From assembly GCF_022008365.1 (NCBI RefSeq), contig NZ_JAIRBA010000002.1, positions 1-64,000 on the forward strand: 64,000 bases of DNA. The letters run 5' to 3'. The translations under genes were made by a program, and so were the position numbers. This stretch comes from Aequorivita vitellina (GTDB lineage Bacteria; Bacteroidota; Bacteroidia; Flavobacteriales; Flavobacteriaceae). The notes under the pieces are model-generated. The model worked only from the letters and a program-made list of their open reading frames with translations. It ran no database searches and was not told where the DNA came from. How positions within the stretch are numbered: the stretch's first letter is position 1; each line of letters starts with the position of its first letter. Positions 19,982 through 26,787 of the stretch are shown one piece after another.

Positions 19982-22900
19982 TTACTCTTTCACAAATCGT
20001 TTCATAAGTTTGTTCGTGTTGGTATTTACTTCAAGTATGTAAACACCGCTTTGCAAAGTTGAAACATCTAAGCTTGCCGAAAACGCACCTTTACCAACTA
20101 CTTGCCCAATTACGTTATAAATAACATAATCTGCCCCAGTTGCGTTAACCAGTGAAATATTTAGCGTGTGTTTAGCAGGGTTTGGATAGATGGAAATTTC
20201 AGAATTGTTAAAACCTGTATCGCCTGTAATTCCTTGATTGACCGAATTGCTGATAATTACGGTATAATCTTCCACTTCGCCATAACTGAAGGTTTCACAA
20301 GAAGATGGATTTGAATTGTATTTCATAGAAACGCGCATTCTCGTCGCTCCTGAAAGTGCAGATGACGGCACAGTAAAACTTCCAGAGATAGAAGTAGAAG
20401 TGGTTCGGGAACGTGAATACACTTGTTCGCCAGAGTCGTTAAAATCGCCATCTTGATTGTAGTCAATCCAAACTCTATAAGCTTCACGATATTTTCTTCC
20501 AGTCCATCTTGGAGTAATGGTAATGGTGTTACTACTTCCTTTGGCTAATGTAGTGGACATACTCGTGAAATCTGCATAACCACCATTATTGCCAGAAAGA
20601 TTGTTGATACTTCCTAATTGAACCCTGTCTATGTATTCGTCATTTGTATTGTTTCCATTAGAAGTACAATACGTTACAGTGTTTGAGAGTGTAGTAACAT
20701 TTACCGTATTACTGAAACCAGAATTGTTGCCAGCTGCATCGTGCGCACGTACTTTAAAGGAATACGCGGTTGAAGGCGACAAACCAGTAATATTTGCTGA
20801 AGTACCCGAAACACTTCCTAAATTTGAACTGCCTTCAAAAACATCGTAACCTGTAACACCCACATTGTCTGTGGAAGCATTCCACGAAAGTGTAAGCGTT
20901 GTTTGTGTTACATTTGAAGCTGCTAAGCTAGATGGCGCGCTAGGCGCTTGGGTATCTGCACCGCCGCCGCCTAAGTTGATGGTGTAATCTTCTACTTCGC
21001 CATAACTAAATGTTTCACAAGAAGTTGGAATTCCGTTGTATTTCATAGAAACCCGCATTCTAGTTTCTCCGTCTACTGTGCCCGAGGGTACTGTAAACGT
21101 TCCGCTATTGGGAGTGTTTTTTGAAGCGGCTTTAGACCAAACCAATTCGCCGGCATCGCCAAAATCACCATCTCCGTTATAGTCAATCCACACCGCGTAA
21201 CCTTCGTTCCAAGTAGACCCGGTCCAAGTTGGGGTTACAGTAATAGTGTAAGAAGAACCTTCATTTAAAGAAGTAGAAATACTCGTAAAGTCTGAATAAA
21301 ACTGCGGGCCCGAAGCATTGTCAATTGTGTTTAATTGTACACGGCTAATATATTCGTCATTCACATTATTTCCTTGCGAAGTACAATAGCCGCTTCCGCC
21401 GCCACCGCCGCCATAAGCTGCGCCTACGCCAACTGCGTACCAAGCGTTTGTTGTTGCAATTTCTTCGGGGCTATCTGCACCGTATAAATCTCTAGCAGCT
21501 TGTATAGCACCGTTTCGGGCATCGCTGTACTGTGAGTTTGAGTTTAAATAAACGGTAAGATTTCTATAAGCAATTGCAGCAGCTTTATCCATTCCTAATC
21601 CGGTAACGTTATAGCTGTCTCCTTTATCGTTTGTTCCACTTTTACCTACGCTTAAAATGTAAAACCAAAAGTTTTGAACGCCAGAATTTGTATGAACACC
21701 GCCAGAATCTCCTGATCCTCCGTACCAATTTGTTCCTTGGTAGGTATCTGGATCGCCGTATGCATTGGGATTGCTCATGGAACGAAGTGCGCCACCGCTT
21801 CCGCCAGCACCAATGTCGTCACCCATTAACCAATCGTTTGAGCCAGAGGCAAATTTTTCAATTGATTCTCCAAAAATATCTGAAAACGATTCATTCAAAG
21901 CTCCAGATTGGTAACTGTAAACAAGGTTTGCTGAATACTCAGTTACGCCGTGGGTTATTTCGTGACCGCAAATATCTAGCGAAACCAATGGACCGTAATT
22001 TACACCATCGCCATCGCCATAGGTCATTCTACTGCCGTCCCAAAATGCATTTACATAATTAGATGAATAGCTAACGTACGATTTTATTACAGCTCCCGCA
22101 TTATTGTATGAGTTTCTGCCGTGTTTTTGGCTGAAGTATTTATGCGTGCGTTCTGCTCCAAAATGTGCTTGAACTCCTGTTGCATTCGATGTAAAATTTG
22201 TTGAATTACTTGTAACATCAACCGCATTGTTATAATTGGTGCTGTTGTTTAAATCGAAAGTTTGAATTCCATTGCCGTCTGCAGTTTGTCGCAAACGGTA
22301 CGGCCCCGAAGCATTATCTGCCGTAAATGAAACGTTTCCATTGTAAAGACTGGTTCCGGTAGCAGGCACGTTTGCGTGATGGATTCTTTTGTTTTCCATA
22401 ATAAATTGCCCCGTTTTTGCGTCAATATAAACGTCGGCTCTGTAAAGAGGCGAGGTGGCATAAATGTCAAATTTGTACGCGAGCCGATTTGTTTCAGAAA
22501 TATTCTCCATAGCTGGAAAAATCACCAAATCGCCCGTTGGTTTTTGATAGTTTGCCAAAGCCGCATTTACAGGATTCTGCCACATATATTTTGTGGCTCC
22601 CACGTGGGCAATGGCGCTGTTAAAAGCTTGCGATTTACTAACGTTTGGTGTTACATTAAAATCTTCAGCAATTGGAGCGTAGGCAGAATTTAAGGTTTGT
22701 ACCGTGCCATTTTTGCTGCTAAGCGTAACGGTGGCAAATTCTACTTTTACACCATTAAAATACTGCTGCATTTTTTGGTGTGTAAATCCTAAAGGGTCGT
22801 GTTCTTGTTTTAGCGAAGTGAAAGAAGTGGGGGATGCTGGATTTAAAACTTCTTTGAAAATTTGTGCAGAATTTTGAAGCGAGTACGATTGTGAAGCATC

Positions 22901-23029
22901 AAAAACTACAAGGCTTTGATGCTGCTTGACGTTTTTCTTTTCATCGTCTTTGTTTTGGGCGGAAACAACCGCCGAAGTCCCAAAGATTAACAATGAAAAT
23001 AATAATACGAAATTGTTAAAGTTTTTCAT
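19982..23029 (-). CDS. Secreted M4 (thermolysin-type) metalloprotease with T9SS signal
   Basis: This 1015-residue protease is exported by a signal peptide (FVLLFSLLIFGTSAVVSAQ) and secreted by T9SS through its C-terminal sorting domain (EISIYPNPAKHTLNIS to MKRFVKE). An N-terminal propeptide of about 200 residues is followed by the M4 domain with the zinc motif HEITH and the third ligand in NESFSDIFGESIE, and then HTNSGVQNFWFY. Downstream lie a GEVED domain (SYGEVEDYTINLG), a fibronectin type III domain (APSSLAASNVTQTTLTL) and a second GEVED domain. The accessory domains probably bind substrate or surfaces. It is a monocistronic gene. Confidence 0.96.
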   Translation of the reverse strand: MKNFNNFVLLFSLLIFGTSAVVSAQNKDDEKKNVKQHQSLVVFDASQSYSLQNSAQIFKEVLNPASPTSFTSLKQEHDPLGFTHQKMQQYFNGVKVEFATVTLSSKNGTVQTLNSAYAPIAEDFNVTPNVSKSQAFNSAIAHVGATKYMWQNPVNAALANYQKPTGDLVIFPAMENISETNRLAYKFDIYATSPLYRADVYIDAKTGQFIMENKRIHHANVPATGTSLYNGNVSFTADNASGPYRLRQTADGNGIQTFDLNNSTNYNNAVDVTSNSTNFTSNATGVQAHFGAERTHKYFSQKHGRNSYNNAGAVIKSYVSYSSNYVNAFWDGSRMTYGDGDGVNYGPLVSLDICGHEITHGVTEYSANLVYSYQSGALNESFSDIFGESIEKFASGSNDWLMGDDIGAGGSGGALRSMSNPNAYGDPDTYQGTNWYGGSGDSGGVHTNSGVQNFWFYILSVGKSGTNDKGDSYNVTGLGMDKAAAIAYRNLTVYLNSNSQYSDARNGAIQAARDLYGADSPEEIATTNAWYAVGVGAAYGGGGGGSGYCTSQGNNVNDEYISRVQLNTIDNASGPQFYSDFTSISTSLNEGSSYTITVTPTWTGSTWNEGYAVWIDYNGDGDFGDAGELVWSKAASKNTPNSGTFTVPSGTVDGETRMRVSMKYNGIPTSCETFSYGEVEDYTINLGGGGADTQAPSAPSSLAASNVTQTTLTLSWNASTDNVGVTGYDVFEGSSNLGSVSGTSANITGLSPSTAYSFKVRAHDAAGNNSGFSNTVNVTTLSNTVTYCTSNGNNTNDEYIDRVQLGSINNLSGNNGGYADFTSMSTTLAKGSSNTITITPRWTGRKYREAYRVWIDYNQDGDFNDSGEQVYSRSRTTSTSISGSFTVPSSALSGATRMRVSMKYNSNPSSCETFSYGEVEDYTVIISNSVNQGITGDTGFNNSEISIYPNPAKHTLNISLVNATGADYVIYNVIGQVVGKGAFSASLDVSTLQSGVYILEVNTNTNKLMKRFVKE

Positions 23030-23170: not shown

Positions 23171-24859
23171 ATGAAAAATCCTCCCTTATTATCGGTTAAA
23201 GAATTATCGGTTTCCTTTGGAAATAAGAAAGGTTTCAAAGAAGTTTTGCACCGTATTTCTTTTGAAGTTTTTAAAAACGAAATCGTCGGGATTGTTGGCG
23301 AATCTGGTTCGGGAAAGTCTGTAACTTCGCTCGCAATTATGGGGTTGCTGCCCAAAAAACAGAGTGTGCTTTCGGGAACTATTTCGTTTGAAGAAAAAAA
23401 TCTTTTAAAAACTTCGGAAAGGGATTTTCGAAAAATACGCGGCAGCGAAATTGCAATGATTTTTCAAGAACCGATGAGCGCTTTAAACCCATCGTTAAAA
23501 TGTGGATATCAAGTTTCCGAAATACTTCAACTTCATTTAAATATGAATTCTTCGGAAGCAAAAAAAGAAACCATTTCACTTTTCAAAAAAGTGAAATTAC
23601 CACGACCAGATGAAATTTTCAACAGTTACCCGCATCAAATTAGCGGCGGACAAATGCAACGGGTTATGATTGCGATGGCAATTGCATGCAAACCAAAATT
23701 GTTAATTGCAGACGAACCCACCACCGCGCTCGATGTGACGGTGCAGAAGGAGATCATTTCACTTTTAAAATCCATTCAACAGGAAACAAAAATGGCGATG
23801 CTTTTTATATCGCACGACTTAAGTTTGGTTTCCGAAATTGCCGATAGCGTAGTGGTTATGTATAAAGGAAATATCGTTGAAAATGCTACCACAACTGAGA
23901 TTTTTAAAACCCCCAAAGCTGAATACACAAAAGCGTTGTTGGCCTCACGACCGGCATTGAACGTACGTTTGGCTAAATTGCCAACCATTGCTTCAATTTC
24001 TGACGAAAGTTTTAAAGCGAGGGAGGTCAAACCTGTAGAACGTGCTAAAAGACACAAAAATATTTATACCCAAAAACCAATTTTGGAGGTTGACAATTTA
24101 GAAAAATATTATTTCAGCAATGTAGGCCTCTTTGCTAGGAAGGAAATAGTGAAAGCCGTGGACAATGTTAGCTTTGCGGTTTTTGAGGGGGAAACTTTAG
24201 GGCTGGTTGGCGAATCGGGTTGCGGAAAATCTACCTTGGGTAAAACAATTCTTCAACTTGAAAAAGCTACATCCGGAAACATAAAATATCGCGGAAAGGA
24301 ACTCACAAAACTTTCCACAACCGAAATACGAAATCTCCGGAAAGAAATACAAATTATTTTTCAGGATCCGTATTCATCATTAAACCCGCGTATAATGATT
24401 GGCCAAGCTTTAATGGAGCCAATGGAGGTTCATCATTTGGGAAATTCTAAAAAGGAACGCAAGAAACGCGTACTTTCGTTACTTGATAGAGTAGGGTTGG
24501 ACGAGAGTTATTTTTATCGATATCCGCACGAACTTTCCGGTGGGCAGCGCCAGCGAGTGGGCATTGCACGTACTATTGTTGTGGAACCAAAACTTGTTAT
24601 TTGCGACGAATCTGTTTCTGCGCTGGATATTTCGGTGCAGGCGCAAGTGCTTAATTTATTGAATGAACTAAAAAACGATTTCGGGTTTACCTATATATTT
24701 ATATCGCACGATTTGGCAGTGGTAAAATATATGTCGGATCAGCTTTTGGTTATGAATAAAGGGAAGATAGAAGAATTAGGCGATGCAGACGAGATTTACG
24801 AAAACCCACAAACCGAATATACAAAAAGGTTAATAGCTGCAATTCCAAAAGGTATTTAG
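23171..24859 (+). CDS. Fused dipeptide/oligopeptide-type ABC ATPase
   Basis: This 562-residue protein joins two ABC ATPase domains, like DppD-DppF or YejF. Domain 1 has Walker [12 protein letters not shown], signature ISGGQMQR and Walker [13 protein letters not shown]. Domain 2, from about residue 300, has [19 protein letters not shown] and [12 protein letters not shown]. Peptide-transporter C-terminal extensions follow each domain. It would power import of peptides, nickel or similar solutes, but no permease or binding-protein gene is adjacent, so its partners lie elsewhere. It is alone on its transcript, which probably ends at the hairpin of repeat unit 1. Confidence 0.94.
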
Positions 24860-24861
24860 AC

Positions 24862-25077
24862 AAAAAATAAAACCCGTCCTCTGAGAGAACGGGTTTTAAG
24901 AACAATCTGTGCTTATGACAGATTTGGGGCAAAAAATACCATAAAAAAGGATTGGACTGTTAAAAACATTTTTTTAAATAATGAAATGTCGTAGGTTACA
25001 ATTCATGTATGTATTTTAATGATCCAACCACTTTTCTATATGAGGTTAAGCTGGTAAGATTTGGGGCTGTAAAGATG
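24862..25077 (-). ncRNA. Candidate small RNA, repeat unit 1
   Basis: Read on the minus strand, the unit begins with a conserved CATCTTTACAG (25067-25077) and ends about 209 bases later in a terminator stem (24869-24877 with 24889-24897) followed by a T-rich tail. Between these are a long stem, TTGGA-type core (24953-24957 with 25023-25027) extended by G-C and A-T pairs, and a small hairpin (24904-24910 with 24918-24924). Compared with units 2 and 3, two core base pairs are changed on both sides, which keeps pairing. No reading frame is conserved. I read it as a stand-alone structured RNA; transcription is inferred. Confidence 0.6.
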
Positions 25078-25129
25078 CATGTATTAGTTTATATAAACGA
25101 TGAAAAGCATATAAATTCGATGAAATGCA
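25078..25129 (-). promoter_or_regulatory. Conserved upstream block of unit 1
   Basis: This block, containing TAAACGA, AAAAGCATATAAATTCGATG and AAATGCA on the plus strand, recurs before all three units at the same distance. It probably holds the promoter, although the match to TTG-TAnnTTTG is poor. Confidence 0.45.
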
Positions 25130-25345
25130 CATAACTTTAACATAATTTAAATTATTTCACCTATATTATCTTAATTGAATGTTAAATCCGCTACTGAAAA
25201 ATATTATTTTCAATATTAAATAACTTTTATAAAATTGATATAACTGTATAAATACGAAAGTCAATTTCCAGTAAACCTGATTTGCTGAAATCGTTTTTTA
25301 ATTTTTATAGAAACTATAGAAGAAAAATAAATGAAGCAGCGCTTT

Positions 25346-25562
25346 AAAAAAAAATAAAAACCCGTTCTGTCAAAAAGAACGGGTTTTGTAATAAATCTGC
25401 TTATGACAGATTTAGGGCAAAAAAACCATTAAGAGAAATCAGATTTGTAATAATACTTTTTTAGAGATGCAAAGTAGGTTGCTGTACAAACTCCAGTATT
25501 GTTTCAATGATCTGACTACTTTTATTAAATTAGGATTTGTAAGATTTGGGACTGTAAAGATG
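25346..25562 (-). ncRNA. Candidate small RNA, repeat unit 2
   Basis: This second copy has the same order on the minus strand: CATCTTTACAG (25552-25562), long stem core TCAGAT/ATCTGA (25439-25444 with 25510-25515), hairpin AAATCTG/CAGATTT (25393-25399 with 25407-25413), and a 12-bp terminator stem (25357-25368 with 25376-25387) with an A/T tail. The distance from the first motif to the terminator is 206 bases. The loop of the long stem is divergent from the other copies, while stem and flanks are kept. Confidence 0.6.
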
Positions 25563-25615
25563 TGACTTAAATTCGACATAGACGACAAAAAGCATATATA
25601 ATCGATGAAATACAT
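25563..25615 (-). promoter_or_regulatory. Conserved upstream block of unit 2
   Basis: This is the same block as before unit 1 (GACGACAAAAAGCATAT and ATCGATGAAATACAT on the plus strand), with somewhat more changes. A promoter role is inferred from its fixed position. Confidence 0.4.
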
Positions 25616-25769
25616 TTATATTTAACATATCGATGTATTTTTAGTGCTATCTGTCTTAAAATAATGTTAAATTATTCACAGTTATAAATTTGAGAGCTCA
25701 TTTTTTAAATTCACATTTAGTACAATTTATAAAACATATAAGAATTTCGGACGAGTTTGTTAAATATTT

Positions 25770-25985
25770 AAAAACCCGTTCTAACCTCACGAAGAACGGG
25801 TTTTAAATTATATCTGTAACTATGACAGATTTGGGGTAAAAAAACCATAAAAAAAGATCAGACTAAAAAAAACACTTTTTTAAAGAGGATAAGTACATTA
25901 CGTAACAATCCAATTGTGCTTTTTAATGATCTGATTACTTTTTCCATATGAGGTTAAGTTGGTAAGATTTGGGACTGTAAAGATG
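25770..25985 (-). ncRNA. Candidate small RNA, repeat unit 3
   Basis: This third copy has CATCTTTACAG (25975-25985), long stem core ATCAGA/TCTGAT (25857-25862 with 25930-25935), hairpin ATCTGT/ACAGAT (25812-25817 with 25825-25830), and a 12-bp terminator stem (25771-25782 with 25793-25804). The motif-to-terminator length is 215 bases. It is the copy nearest scoB, from which it is separated by the scoB terminator. A 29-codon frame crosses the long stem in this copy only; the other copies lack its start codon. Confidence 0.6.
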
Positions 25986-26038
25986 CATGTATTATTTAAT
26001 ATAAACGACAAAACGCATATAAATTCGATGAAATGCAT
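25986..26038 (-). promoter_or_regulatory. Conserved upstream block of unit 3
   Basis: This block is nearly identical to the one before unit 1 over about 50 bases (ATATAAACGACAAAACGCAT and AAATTCGATGAAATGCAT on the plus strand). It is probably the promoter region of unit 3. Confidence 0.45.
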
Positions 26039-26078
26039 TAAAAATTAACATTTAAGGAGGGTTCATACTTATATCACA

Positions 26079-26130: not shown

Positions 26131-26787
26131 TTAAAATTTCATCTCTGCAATCGCTCCATCTACAATTAAATCTCCCTCTGTAGCTTTTTGAATTTCTTCA
26201 ACAGTTACGCCCGGAGCGCGTTCAAGCAAGTGGAATTTTCCGTCTTTAATTTCGAGAACAGCGAGATTGGTTACTATTTTTTTAACGCATTGTACGCCGG
26301 TTAAAGGAAGACTACATTCTTTTAACAGTTTTGATTCTCCTGCCCTATTGGTGTGCATCATTGCAACAATTATATTTTCTGCCGAAGCGACCAAATCCAT
26401 GGCGCCGCCCATGCCTTTCACCATTTTACCGGGGATTTTCCAGTTGGCGATATCGCCATTTTGCGCAACTTCCATTGCCCCAAGTATTGTTAAATCTACG
26501 TGTTGTCCGCGAATCATTCCAAAACTCATTGCCGAATCGAAAAAGGAAGCGCCGGGAAGTGCTGTTATTGTCTGTTTTCCCGCATTGATTAAATCGGGGT
26601 CTTCTTCGCCTTCAAAAGGAAAAGGCCCCATGCCGAGTATTCCGTTTTCACTTTGAAATTCTACATTTATATCGTCGCGCACAAAATTAGCAACCAAAGT
26701 TGGAATTCCGATCCCTAAGTTAACGTAATACCTATCCTTTACTTCTTTTGCAATGCGCTGTGCTATTTGTTCTTTAGTTAAAGCCAT
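26131..26787 (-). CDS. scoB: 3-oxoacid CoA-transferase subunit B
   Basis: This 218-residue beta subunit moves CoA between succinyl-CoA and acetoacetate (or a similar 3-oxoacid), in ketone-body or short-chain acid use. The active-site glutamate is in the SENGILGMGPFP motif near residue 46. Other family features are YYVNLGIGIPTLV and KGMGGAMDLVA. Its ATG is separated from the end of the alpha-subunit gene by an overlap of one base, the usual arrangement for the two subunits. Length is standard. Confidence 0.96.
   Translation of the reverse strand: MALTKEQIAQRIAKEVKDRYYVNLGIGIPTLVANFVRDDINVEFQSENGILGMGPFPFEGEEDPDLINAGKQTITALPGASFFDSAMSFGMIRGQHVDLTILGAMEVAQNGDIANWKIPGKMVKGMGGAMDLVASAENIIVAMMHTNRAGESKLLKECSLPLTGVQCVKKIVTNLAVLEIKDGKFHLLERAPGVTVEEIQKATEGDLIVDGAIAEMKF

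What the first reader, a model, noticed from the sequence alone, without database searches (positions are those of the whole stretch)
24862..26038. Three tandem structured units that look like an undescribed small-RNA family
Seen in sequence: three non-coding units repeat at 488 and 414 bp intervals. Each has, on the minus strand, a conserved 50-bp upstream block, CATCTTTACAG, a long imperfect stem, a small hairpin and a GC-rich terminator, with the motif-to-terminator length kept at 206-215 bases. In the long stem, unit 1 has TTGGA/TCCAA where units 2 and 3 have TCAGA/TCTGA, so two base pairs changed on both sides while pairing was kept. The units sit between the 3' ends of convergent genes, so they are not leaders. 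Inference: three paralogous stand-alone RNAs, each with its own promoter and terminator. Repeated sRNA copies elsewhere often act on several targets or provide dose control. Two copies of CCCCAAATCT-type sequence per unit (minus strand) are candidate single-stranded contact sites.
Basis: partly seen in the sequence, partly recalled or inferred. Interest (0 to 1): 0.88.

Follow-up and report, generated by a model that had tools for sequence, protein, structure and literature searches.

The report
Tiny-peptide gene in triplicated structured RNA
The three repeats are copies of one short, folded transcript that in its intact form encodes a conserved 29-amino-acid, probably membrane-acting peptide found across one family of bacteria; two of the three copies here have lost the peptide but kept the RNA parts.

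Summary
The three tandem minus-strand units are real; each has a conserved box, a promoter-like motif, a stem, a hairpin and a terminator. They are not simply a non-coding RNA family. The unit nearest the CoA transferase (u3) holds an intact 29-codon ORF. In the genus (Aequorivita, by contig-length matches) 23 of 29 copies keep it (pN/pS 0.29; 0 of 500 column shuffles as low). A peptide profile gives one stop-free hit in each of 149 of 397 Flavobacteriaceae genomes, 98 of 237 genera. Of 41 fetched hit loci, 40 lie beside the same ABC-transporter and/or CoA-transferase genes and 40 have the box. The peptide is cationic and amphipathic; five scanned members match no Pfam or NCBIfam model over its cut-off. 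u1 and u2 have lost the ORF but keep box, C-rich sites, hairpin and terminator. The box is a 20-bp-period direct repeat resembling LytTR-regulator sites and recurs before other genes. Best reading: a LytTR-type-controlled small-protein mRNA, possibly dual-function like staphylococcal RNAIII, with two ORF-less paralogues. Transcription, translation, regulator and targets are inferred, not shown.

The parts
25858..25947 (-). u3: intact 29-codon ORF, MEKVIRSLKSTIGLLRNVLILFKKVFFLV, stop TGA
   Evidence: pN/pS; profile hit 25861-25947, E 5.1e-12, no stop
26006..26050 (-). u3: upstream box, TGTTAA plus 20-bp-period direct repeat, LytTR-like
   Evidence: (2 mismatches), comparison with PMC4847170 passages
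25975..25985 (-). u3: CATCTTTACAG, probable -7 promoter element (consensus recalled)
   Evidence: alignment
25960..25973 (-). u3: C-rich leader site CCCAAATCTTACCA
25951..25956 (-). u3: TAACCT just before the start codon, complementary to the terminator loop
   Evidence: pairing inferred
25821..25836 (-). u3: second C-rich site CCCCAAATCTGTCATA, opens the 3' hairpin
25770..25804 (-). u3: terminator, loop with AGGTTA at 25782-25787
   Evidence: by eye; the same loop motif in relatives
25583..25627 (-). u2: upstream box
   Evidence: 1 mismatch
25356..25563 (-). u2: transcript region from the -7-like motif to the terminator; canonical ATG lost, no 29-aa ORF; C-rich sites at 25540-25550 and 25402-25417
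25098..25142 (-). u1: upstream box
   Evidence: 0 mismatches
24869..25078 (-). u1: transcript region from the -7-like motif to the terminator; ATG lost and frame shifted; C-rich sites at 25052-25066 and 24914-24929
23171..24859 (+). flank: double ABC ATPase (oligopeptide type), convergent with the units
   Evidence: syntenic in related loci
26131..26787 (-). flank: CoA-transferase subunit (scoB-like), upstream of the units on the same strand
   Evidence: syntenic in related loci
19982..23029 (-). M4 metallopeptidase with Por_Secre_tail; a box lies 5' of its orthologue in some relatives, degenerate here

Best explanation
The unit is a stand-alone small-protein gene. A box that looks like a LytTR response-regulator site drives a transcript of about 200 nt with a C-rich leader, a 29-codon ORF for a cationic amphipathic peptide that probably acts at the membrane, a C-rich 3' hairpin and a terminator with a conserved loop. 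Translation is probably restrained by the RNA itself: in many Aequorivita copies the start codon lies in a long stem, and the terminator loop AGGUUA can pair with UAACCU just before the start codon. The locus was triplicated before this species split from a close relative. u3 keeps the peptide; u1 and u2 have lost it but keep promoter region, C-rich sites, hairpin and terminator and may act as RNAs. Shown by computation: the ORF, purifying selection, distribution, synteny, box, predicted fold, tree. Inferred: transcription, translation, regulator, membrane action, translational control, RNA role of u1 and u2.
For: ORF intact in 23 of 29 genus copies, pN/pS 0.29, 0 of 500 column shuffles as low. 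Peptide profile: 149 of 397 family genomes, one stop-free hit each (some of these seeded the profile). Sixteen loci of other genera: pN/pS 0.29, C-terminal half 0.13, 0 of 300 shuffles. Synteny 40 of 41 and box 40 of 41 fetched hit loci, which are among the best-scoring hits. Helical moment significant in 23 of 28, net positive charge in 27 of 28. Box pattern in 75 of 149 genomes, reversed control in none. Terminator loop AGGUU[A/G] in 22 of 22 ORF-intact copies with sequence, 0 of 6 ORF-less, and 18 of 18 loci of the 29/36-aa type in other genera.
Against: No expression data. One reverse frame also has low pN/pS (0.40). Start-codon burial is strong (pairing at least 0.8) in only 15 of 22 intact genus copies and 6 of 25 loci of other genera. 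RNAalifold did not choose the long stem on 26 copies. The 41-57-aa variants lack the AGGUUA terminator (0 of 7 by pattern). Box spacing is a base shorter than the range given for LytTR sites. Six of 28 genus genomes lack the unit, so it is dispensable.
Confidence: 0.62

Rival explanations
1. Dual-function RNA resembling RNAIII: the transcript encodes the amphipathic peptide and also regulates other mRNAs through its C-rich CCCAAAUCU sites; u1, u2 and a second box-driven RNA would be RNA-only members of the same network.
For: C-rich 3' site kept in 4 of 6 ORF-less copies by pattern, with a near variant in the other two. u2 and its orthologue in G009 both lack the 29-aa ORF yet keep box and C-rich hairpin (80% and 85% identical, ORF region 70%). 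u1's 3' arm pairs best with its own 5' arm. A second box-driven, apparently non-coding RNA carries CCC[CT]AAATCTA. The box also precedes a secreted protease in some relatives.
Against: No target was searched for or shown. u2 and G009a keep only 17 stem pairs, and u2 and G009b stems are weak. Retention of promoter and terminator could be slow decay. RNAIII's C-rich loops dock on Shine-Dalgarno sequences, which this phylum lacks (PMC6847099 passages).
Confidence: 0.25
2. Type I toxin: the peptide is a membrane toxin whose mRNA is held inactive by its fold and silenced by an antisense RNA; u1 and u2 are decoys or remnants.
For: Short, hydrophobic, cationic peptide; tandem copies; buried start codon in 15 of 22 intact genus copies; possible terminator-leader pairing.
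Against: Single copy at one conserved chromosomal locus in 149 genomes, unlike mobile toxin loci (recalled). No antisense promoter found by eye. Shared regulatory box suggests a regulon gene.
Confidence: 0.12
3. Peptide signal: the peptide is secreted and sensed by a two-component system that drives the box, giving a positive feedback loop.
For: A LytTR regulator beside a TPR histidine kinase co-occurs with the unit in the genus: 21 of 22 versus 1 of 6.
Against: Over the family the association is weak: 103 of 149 versus 104 of 248 (7 candidates scored per genome, no phylogenetic correction). No export or processing gene lies beside the peptide gene. The kinase link is untested.
Confidence: 0.07
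4. Purely non-coding sRNA family with a fortuitous ORF.
For: ORF-less copies exist (6 of 29) and the stem covaries.
Against: In-frame codon selection in two independent sets; stop-free profile hits in 149 genomes, including genera where the start-codon stem is absent.
Confidence: 0.05

Closest known systems
Staphylococcus aureus RNAIII (agr system)
   Same: Stand-alone RNA that is also the mRNA of a short PSM peptide and has C-rich regulatory sites (PMC2837412 passages); AgrA has a LytTR domain (title PMC4227749, listing; that AgrA drives RNAIII is recalled).
   Different: No sequence relation tested or claimed; shorter; different phylum; no regulation of other mRNAs shown here; C-rich sites lie in leader and 3' hairpin.
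psm-mec RNA (peptide mRNA acting as RNA; title in listing PMC3617227)
   Same: Short peptide mRNA with an RNA activity.
   Different: Carried on a mobile element; RNA activity experimentally shown there, only inferred here.
Rfp18 sRNA of Flavobacterium psychrophilum (PMC9723704 passages)
   Same: Structured independent transcript in the same bacterial family; its deletion lowers two metalloprotease mRNAs; our unit lies near a metalloprotease gene.
   Different: Position and sequence of Rfp18 were not available, so homology is untested; it is reported as an sRNA.
Type I toxin mRNAs (recalled; review PMC8309996 seen in listing)
   Same: Small hydrophobic peptide, structured mRNA.
   Different: No antisense RNA or toxicity shown; chromosomal, syntenic, single copy in most genomes.
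Flavo-1 RNA motif
   Same: A computed RNA motif said to be widespread in Flavobacteriaceae (PMC9723704 passage).
   Different: No gathering-level Rfam hit in the window or six related loci; Flavo-1 is not among the 29 sub-threshold matches of the region.

Membership tests
Non-coding trans-acting sRNA | own promoter and intrinsic terminator | tested here: inconclusive
   Conserved box, -7-like motif and terminator; no transcript data
Non-coding trans-acting sRNA | no conserved ORF | tested here: not met
   u3 and 149 of 397 genomes carry the ORF; u1 and u2 do lack it
Non-coding trans-acting sRNA | base-pairs with target mRNAs | not tested
   no target search was made
Dual-function RNA of the RNAIII kind | encodes a short amphipathic peptide | tested here: met
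   (sequence level; translation not shown)
Dual-function RNA of the RNAIII kind | unpaired C-rich regulatory motif | tested here: inconclusive
   CCCAAAT sites conserved; leader mostly unpaired in predictions; function unknown
Dual-function RNA of the RNAIII kind | promoter activated by a LytTR regulator | tested here: inconclusive
   Box resembles a LytTR site; candidate regulator co-occurs in the genus, weakly in the family
Dual-function RNA of the RNAIII kind | RNA regulates other genes independently of the peptide | not testable with these tools
   needs mutants
LytTR binding site | direct or inverse repeats of 9-11 nt with 11-13 nt between (PMC4847170 passage) | tested here: inconclusive
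   10-nt repeats with 10 nt between; TGCATTTCAT versus the YpdB motif GGCATTTCAT
Type I toxin-antitoxin | antisense RNA to the toxin mRNA | tested here: inconclusive
   only an inspection by eye of the plus strand; nothing convincing
Type I toxin-antitoxin | toxicity when overexpressed | not testable with these tools
   bench test
Rfam Flavo-1 or another Rfam family | covariance-model match over the gathering score | tested here: not met
   0 matches in the window and in six related loci
Rfp18 | sequence or positional homology | not testable with these tools
   sequence and coordinates are in supplements that were not available

The most novel reading that the evidence does not exclude
A Flavobacteriaceae counterpart of RNAIII that arose independently: a LytTR-type two-component system switches on a syntenic RNA that is both the mRNA of a conserved amphipathic peptide and a regulatory RNA with C-rich contact sites, controlling secreted proteins such as the neighbouring T9SS metalloprotease together with a second box-driven RNA; in this genome the two roles have been divided among tandem copies, one coding and two RNA-only.
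Probability: 0.2. Interest if true: 0.85.

Novelty: new variant of a known kind. Interest (0 to 1): 0.62.

Why it matters
It points to a small protein that is conserved and syntenic over 98 of 237 sampled Flavobacteriaceae genera yet matches no Pfam or NCBIfam model over its cut-off in five scanned members. It gives that protein a specific mRNA anatomy and a shared regulatory box. Because the box also precedes a secreted protease in some relatives and a second conserved RNA, it offers a concrete, testable entry into two-component and RNA regulation in this family. The ORF-less tandem copies are a natural experiment that separates the peptide from the RNA.

Tried and rejected
Rfam: none at the gathering score; the 29 sub-threshold matches were taken as chance. 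Purely non-coding family: rejected as the whole story. Start-codon burial as a family-wide mechanism: rejected outside Aequorivita (pairing at least 0.8 in 6 of 25 loci). In one search a different 29-aa frame (MCFSF...) was picked up by mistake in some copies; one search is the corrected count. RNAalifold's consensus lacked the long stem; I used an averaged-probability structure and counted its pairs, which leans towards that structure. In one search the slid controls of -2 and -1 reach 13 and 11 pairs with double changes against 12, so that single measure does not separate; cells paired (91.7% against 52.4% at most) and the covariation score (0.108 against 0.051 at most) do. Regulator identification over the family is inconclusive. 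Complementarity of terminator loop and leader in the 41-57-aa variants was set aside because that region also reads antisense to the ABC gene's last codons (by eye). An antisense promoter on the plus strand was looked for only by eye. No structure prediction was run (29 aa is below the tool's minimum of 30) and no covariance model was built. Papers: searches of open-licence PMC; in their listings I saw no title or abstract describing this gene, and subscription journals are not covered. Seen: PMC9723704 outline, abstract and passages; PMC4847170, PMC6847099 and PMC2837412 passages; all others as search listings.

Full report
What is there. Three minus-strand units lie between a double ABC ATPase gene (23171-24859 +) and a CoA-transferase subunit (26131-26787 -). 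They align over 323 columns with 82% mean column identity, and a DNA search of the 3.63-Mb genome finds no other copy. Each has an upstream box, CATCTTTACAG, CCCAAATCTTAC, a long stem, CCC[CT]AAATCTGTCATA with a small hairpin, and a terminator. No Rfam family reaches its gathering score in the window. The genus is Aequorivita, judged by equal contig lengths (for example 246724, 585722 and 668711 bases); no tool names the window's own genome.

The units are a gene, not only an RNA. A DNA search finds matches in 23 of 28 genus genomes; one of these (G023) is a 48-bp box match only, so 22 carry the unit, two of them with reservations (G013 has two shortened copies; G018 is 69% complete). The 30 fetched loci that hold a unit or part of one lie beside the same flanking genes; three loci with short partial matches (L026, L032, L033) do not. 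Aligning 29 copies shows a 29-codon ORF that starts inside the long stem. It is intact in 23 of 29 copies (20 distinct). pN/pS in frame is 0.29, against 1.19 and 1.44 in the other forward frames and 1.28, 0.40 and 1.82 in the reverse frames; 0 of 500 column shuffles are as low. Six copies lack it: u1, u2, two in G009 and two in G013.

Distribution. A DNA query matched 166 of 397 sampled Flavobacteriaceae genomes, many through the box alone. A profile of 28 peptides gave one hit in each of 149 of 397 genomes, 98 of 237 genera, at E <= 1e-4, all listed as free of stops. The profile's own sequences are among these, so the hits are not all independent. In an order-wide sample of 395 genomes, 31 matched at E <= 0.01; the 12 below 1e-5 were all in the same family. 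Of 41 fetched hit loci (among the best-scoring), 40 lie beside the same ABC and/or CoA-transferase genes and 40 have the box within 7 of 29 mismatches. Sixteen loci of other genera give pN/pS 0.29, and 0.13 in the C-terminal 15 codons; 0 of 300 shuffles are as low. Five peptides scanned against NCBIfam and Pfam gave only sub-cut-off matches (E 0.036 and 0.087). Net charge is positive in 27 of 28 members and the helical moment is significant in 23 of 28. Variants of 36-57 aa exist. Six genus genomes have neighbouring flanks but no unit.

The terminator as a tag. The pattern CCCGTTCTTNGTGAGGTTRGAACGGG gave 73 stretches in genome contigs, 72 with one match and one with two; named records include Aequorivita, Altibacter, Ulvibacter, Patiriisocius and Marixanthomonas.

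RNA structure. u3 and two relatives fold well below shuffles (z -4.0 to -4.6). RNAalifold on 26 units did not pick the long stem; averaged pair probabilities did. That structure has 91.7% of cells paired and 12 pairs with changes on both sides, against 90.2% and 5.7 in shuffles (0 of 500 each); slid by -2 or -1 columns it still gives 13 and 11 such pairs, but only 46-52% of cells paired. One covarying pair joins the third base of codon 5 (ATT/ATC) to the second base of the stop (TAA/TGA), so coding and pairing constraints overlap. The start codon is paired with probability of at least 0.8 in 15 of the 22 intact copies of that alignment, but in only 6 of 25 loci of other genera. The stem arms of u1 and of G006 fit their own partner well; u2 and G009a keep only 17 pairs.

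Two modules. In Aequorivita the terminator loop AGGUU[A/G] occurs in 22 of 22 ORF-intact copies whose terminator is sequenced and in 0 of 6 ORF-less copies. In other genera it is in 18 of 18 loci of the 29/36-aa type and was not found by the pattern in 7 loci of the 41-57-aa type (25 of 27 fetched loci, L085 and L094 left out as holding no complete unit in the stretch shown). It is complementary to UAACCU upstream of the start codon; UAACC[UA] is in 23 of 23 intact copies, 2 of 6 ORF-less copies and 12 of the 18 loci. The C-rich 3' site is kept in 4 of 6 ORF-less copies by pattern, and the two G013 copies show a near variant. This suggests a translation module lost with the ORF and an RNA module kept without it; only about four independent losses underlie the contrast, by my reading of the tree.

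History. In a tree of 28 copies u2 groups with G009b (96/83) and u3 with G009c (90/78, below the program's mark for firm support), so the triplication probably predates the split of these two species. G019 has two copies, identical in ORF and 97-100% in the 3' part but 74-85% upstream, separated by remnants of both flanking genes: a segmental duplication.

The box. Its core is a direct repeat with a 20-bp period, TGCATTTCATCG-N8-TGCTTTTTATCG, behind TGTTAAA. The YpdB LytTR site is a direct repeat of GGCATTTCAT, and LytTR sites are described as 9-11-nt repeats with 11-13-nt spacers (PMC4847170 passages); ours has 10-nt repeats with 10 nt between. The pattern with up to 3 mismatches hits 75 of 149 genomes (74 of 148 genera), and its reversed control hits none. 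Downstream of 30 fetched sites lie this peptide gene or its ORF-less copy (7 clear cases), a second conserved RNA (16 of 30) and several secreted-type proteins. In 5 of 28 genus genomes a box lies about 2 kb from the unit, where the M4 metallopeptidase begins (confirmed by sequence in one); that protein has a T9SS tail, and in this window the site is degenerate.

Candidate regulator. I compared 84 of 85 LytTR-domain regions of 5 unit-bearing and 6 unit-less genomes (one region with stops was left out). A 243-aa receiver-LytTR protein beside a TPR histidine kinase stood out. In the genus it is in 21 of 22 unit-bearing genomes (the miss is 69% complete) and 1 of 6 others (Fisher p 0.0004, not corrected for phylogeny). 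Over the family 103 of 149 peptide genomes and 104 of 248 others have it, with 7 candidates per genome scored. It is a lead, not a finding.

Interpretation. The best-supported account is a box-driven mRNA for a small amphipathic peptide, with probable built-in translational restraint in this genus and two derived ORF-less copies here. Whether the RNA also regulates other genes is open. The nearest working analogue is RNAIII, which encodes a PSM peptide and uses C-rich loops (PMC2837412 passages); no sequence relation is claimed. Against a close analogy, RNAIII's loops meet Shine-Dalgarno sequences, which Bacteroidetes mRNAs lack (PMC6847099 passages). Rfp18 of F. psychrophilum affects metalloprotease mRNAs (PMC9723704 passages) and could be related; its location was not available to me.

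Noticed in passing
L172-L177, L180, L183, L185, L186, L191, L192, L194-L197, L094, within about 300 bases downstream of the box: A second conserved, apparently non-coding RNA behind the same box, with TTAGTTCAATGGATTAATTAATTAATATTTGCAT, a CCC[CT]AAATCTA motif and a terminator loop with GAGGG; in some loci a gene that looks like a D-Ala-D-Ala dipeptidase (label recalled, not tested) follows. No Rfam gathering hit in L172, L192, L094.
   Followed up: partly
L058 738-1451 (-); G000:C164:118525-118552: A box variant precedes a secreted-type leucine-rich-repeat protein in L058; a very similar site occurs in nine genus genomes and, with one change, in the window's genome; the gene was checked in one locus only and the LRR label is by eye.
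   Followed up: partly
L379 7120-10061 (-): Two-component pair: histidine kinase of 736 aa with TPR repeats and a 243-aa LytTR response regulator, candidate reader of the box.
   Followed up: partly
L005 / L027: Two copies of the unit separated by remnants of both flanking genes, showing how tandem copies arise.
   Followed up: partly
L193, from about 253 bases downstream of the box start: A box-preceded small ORF of 79 aa, lipoprotein-like by eye, with repeated GGGVDERDTEATTF.
   Followed up: no
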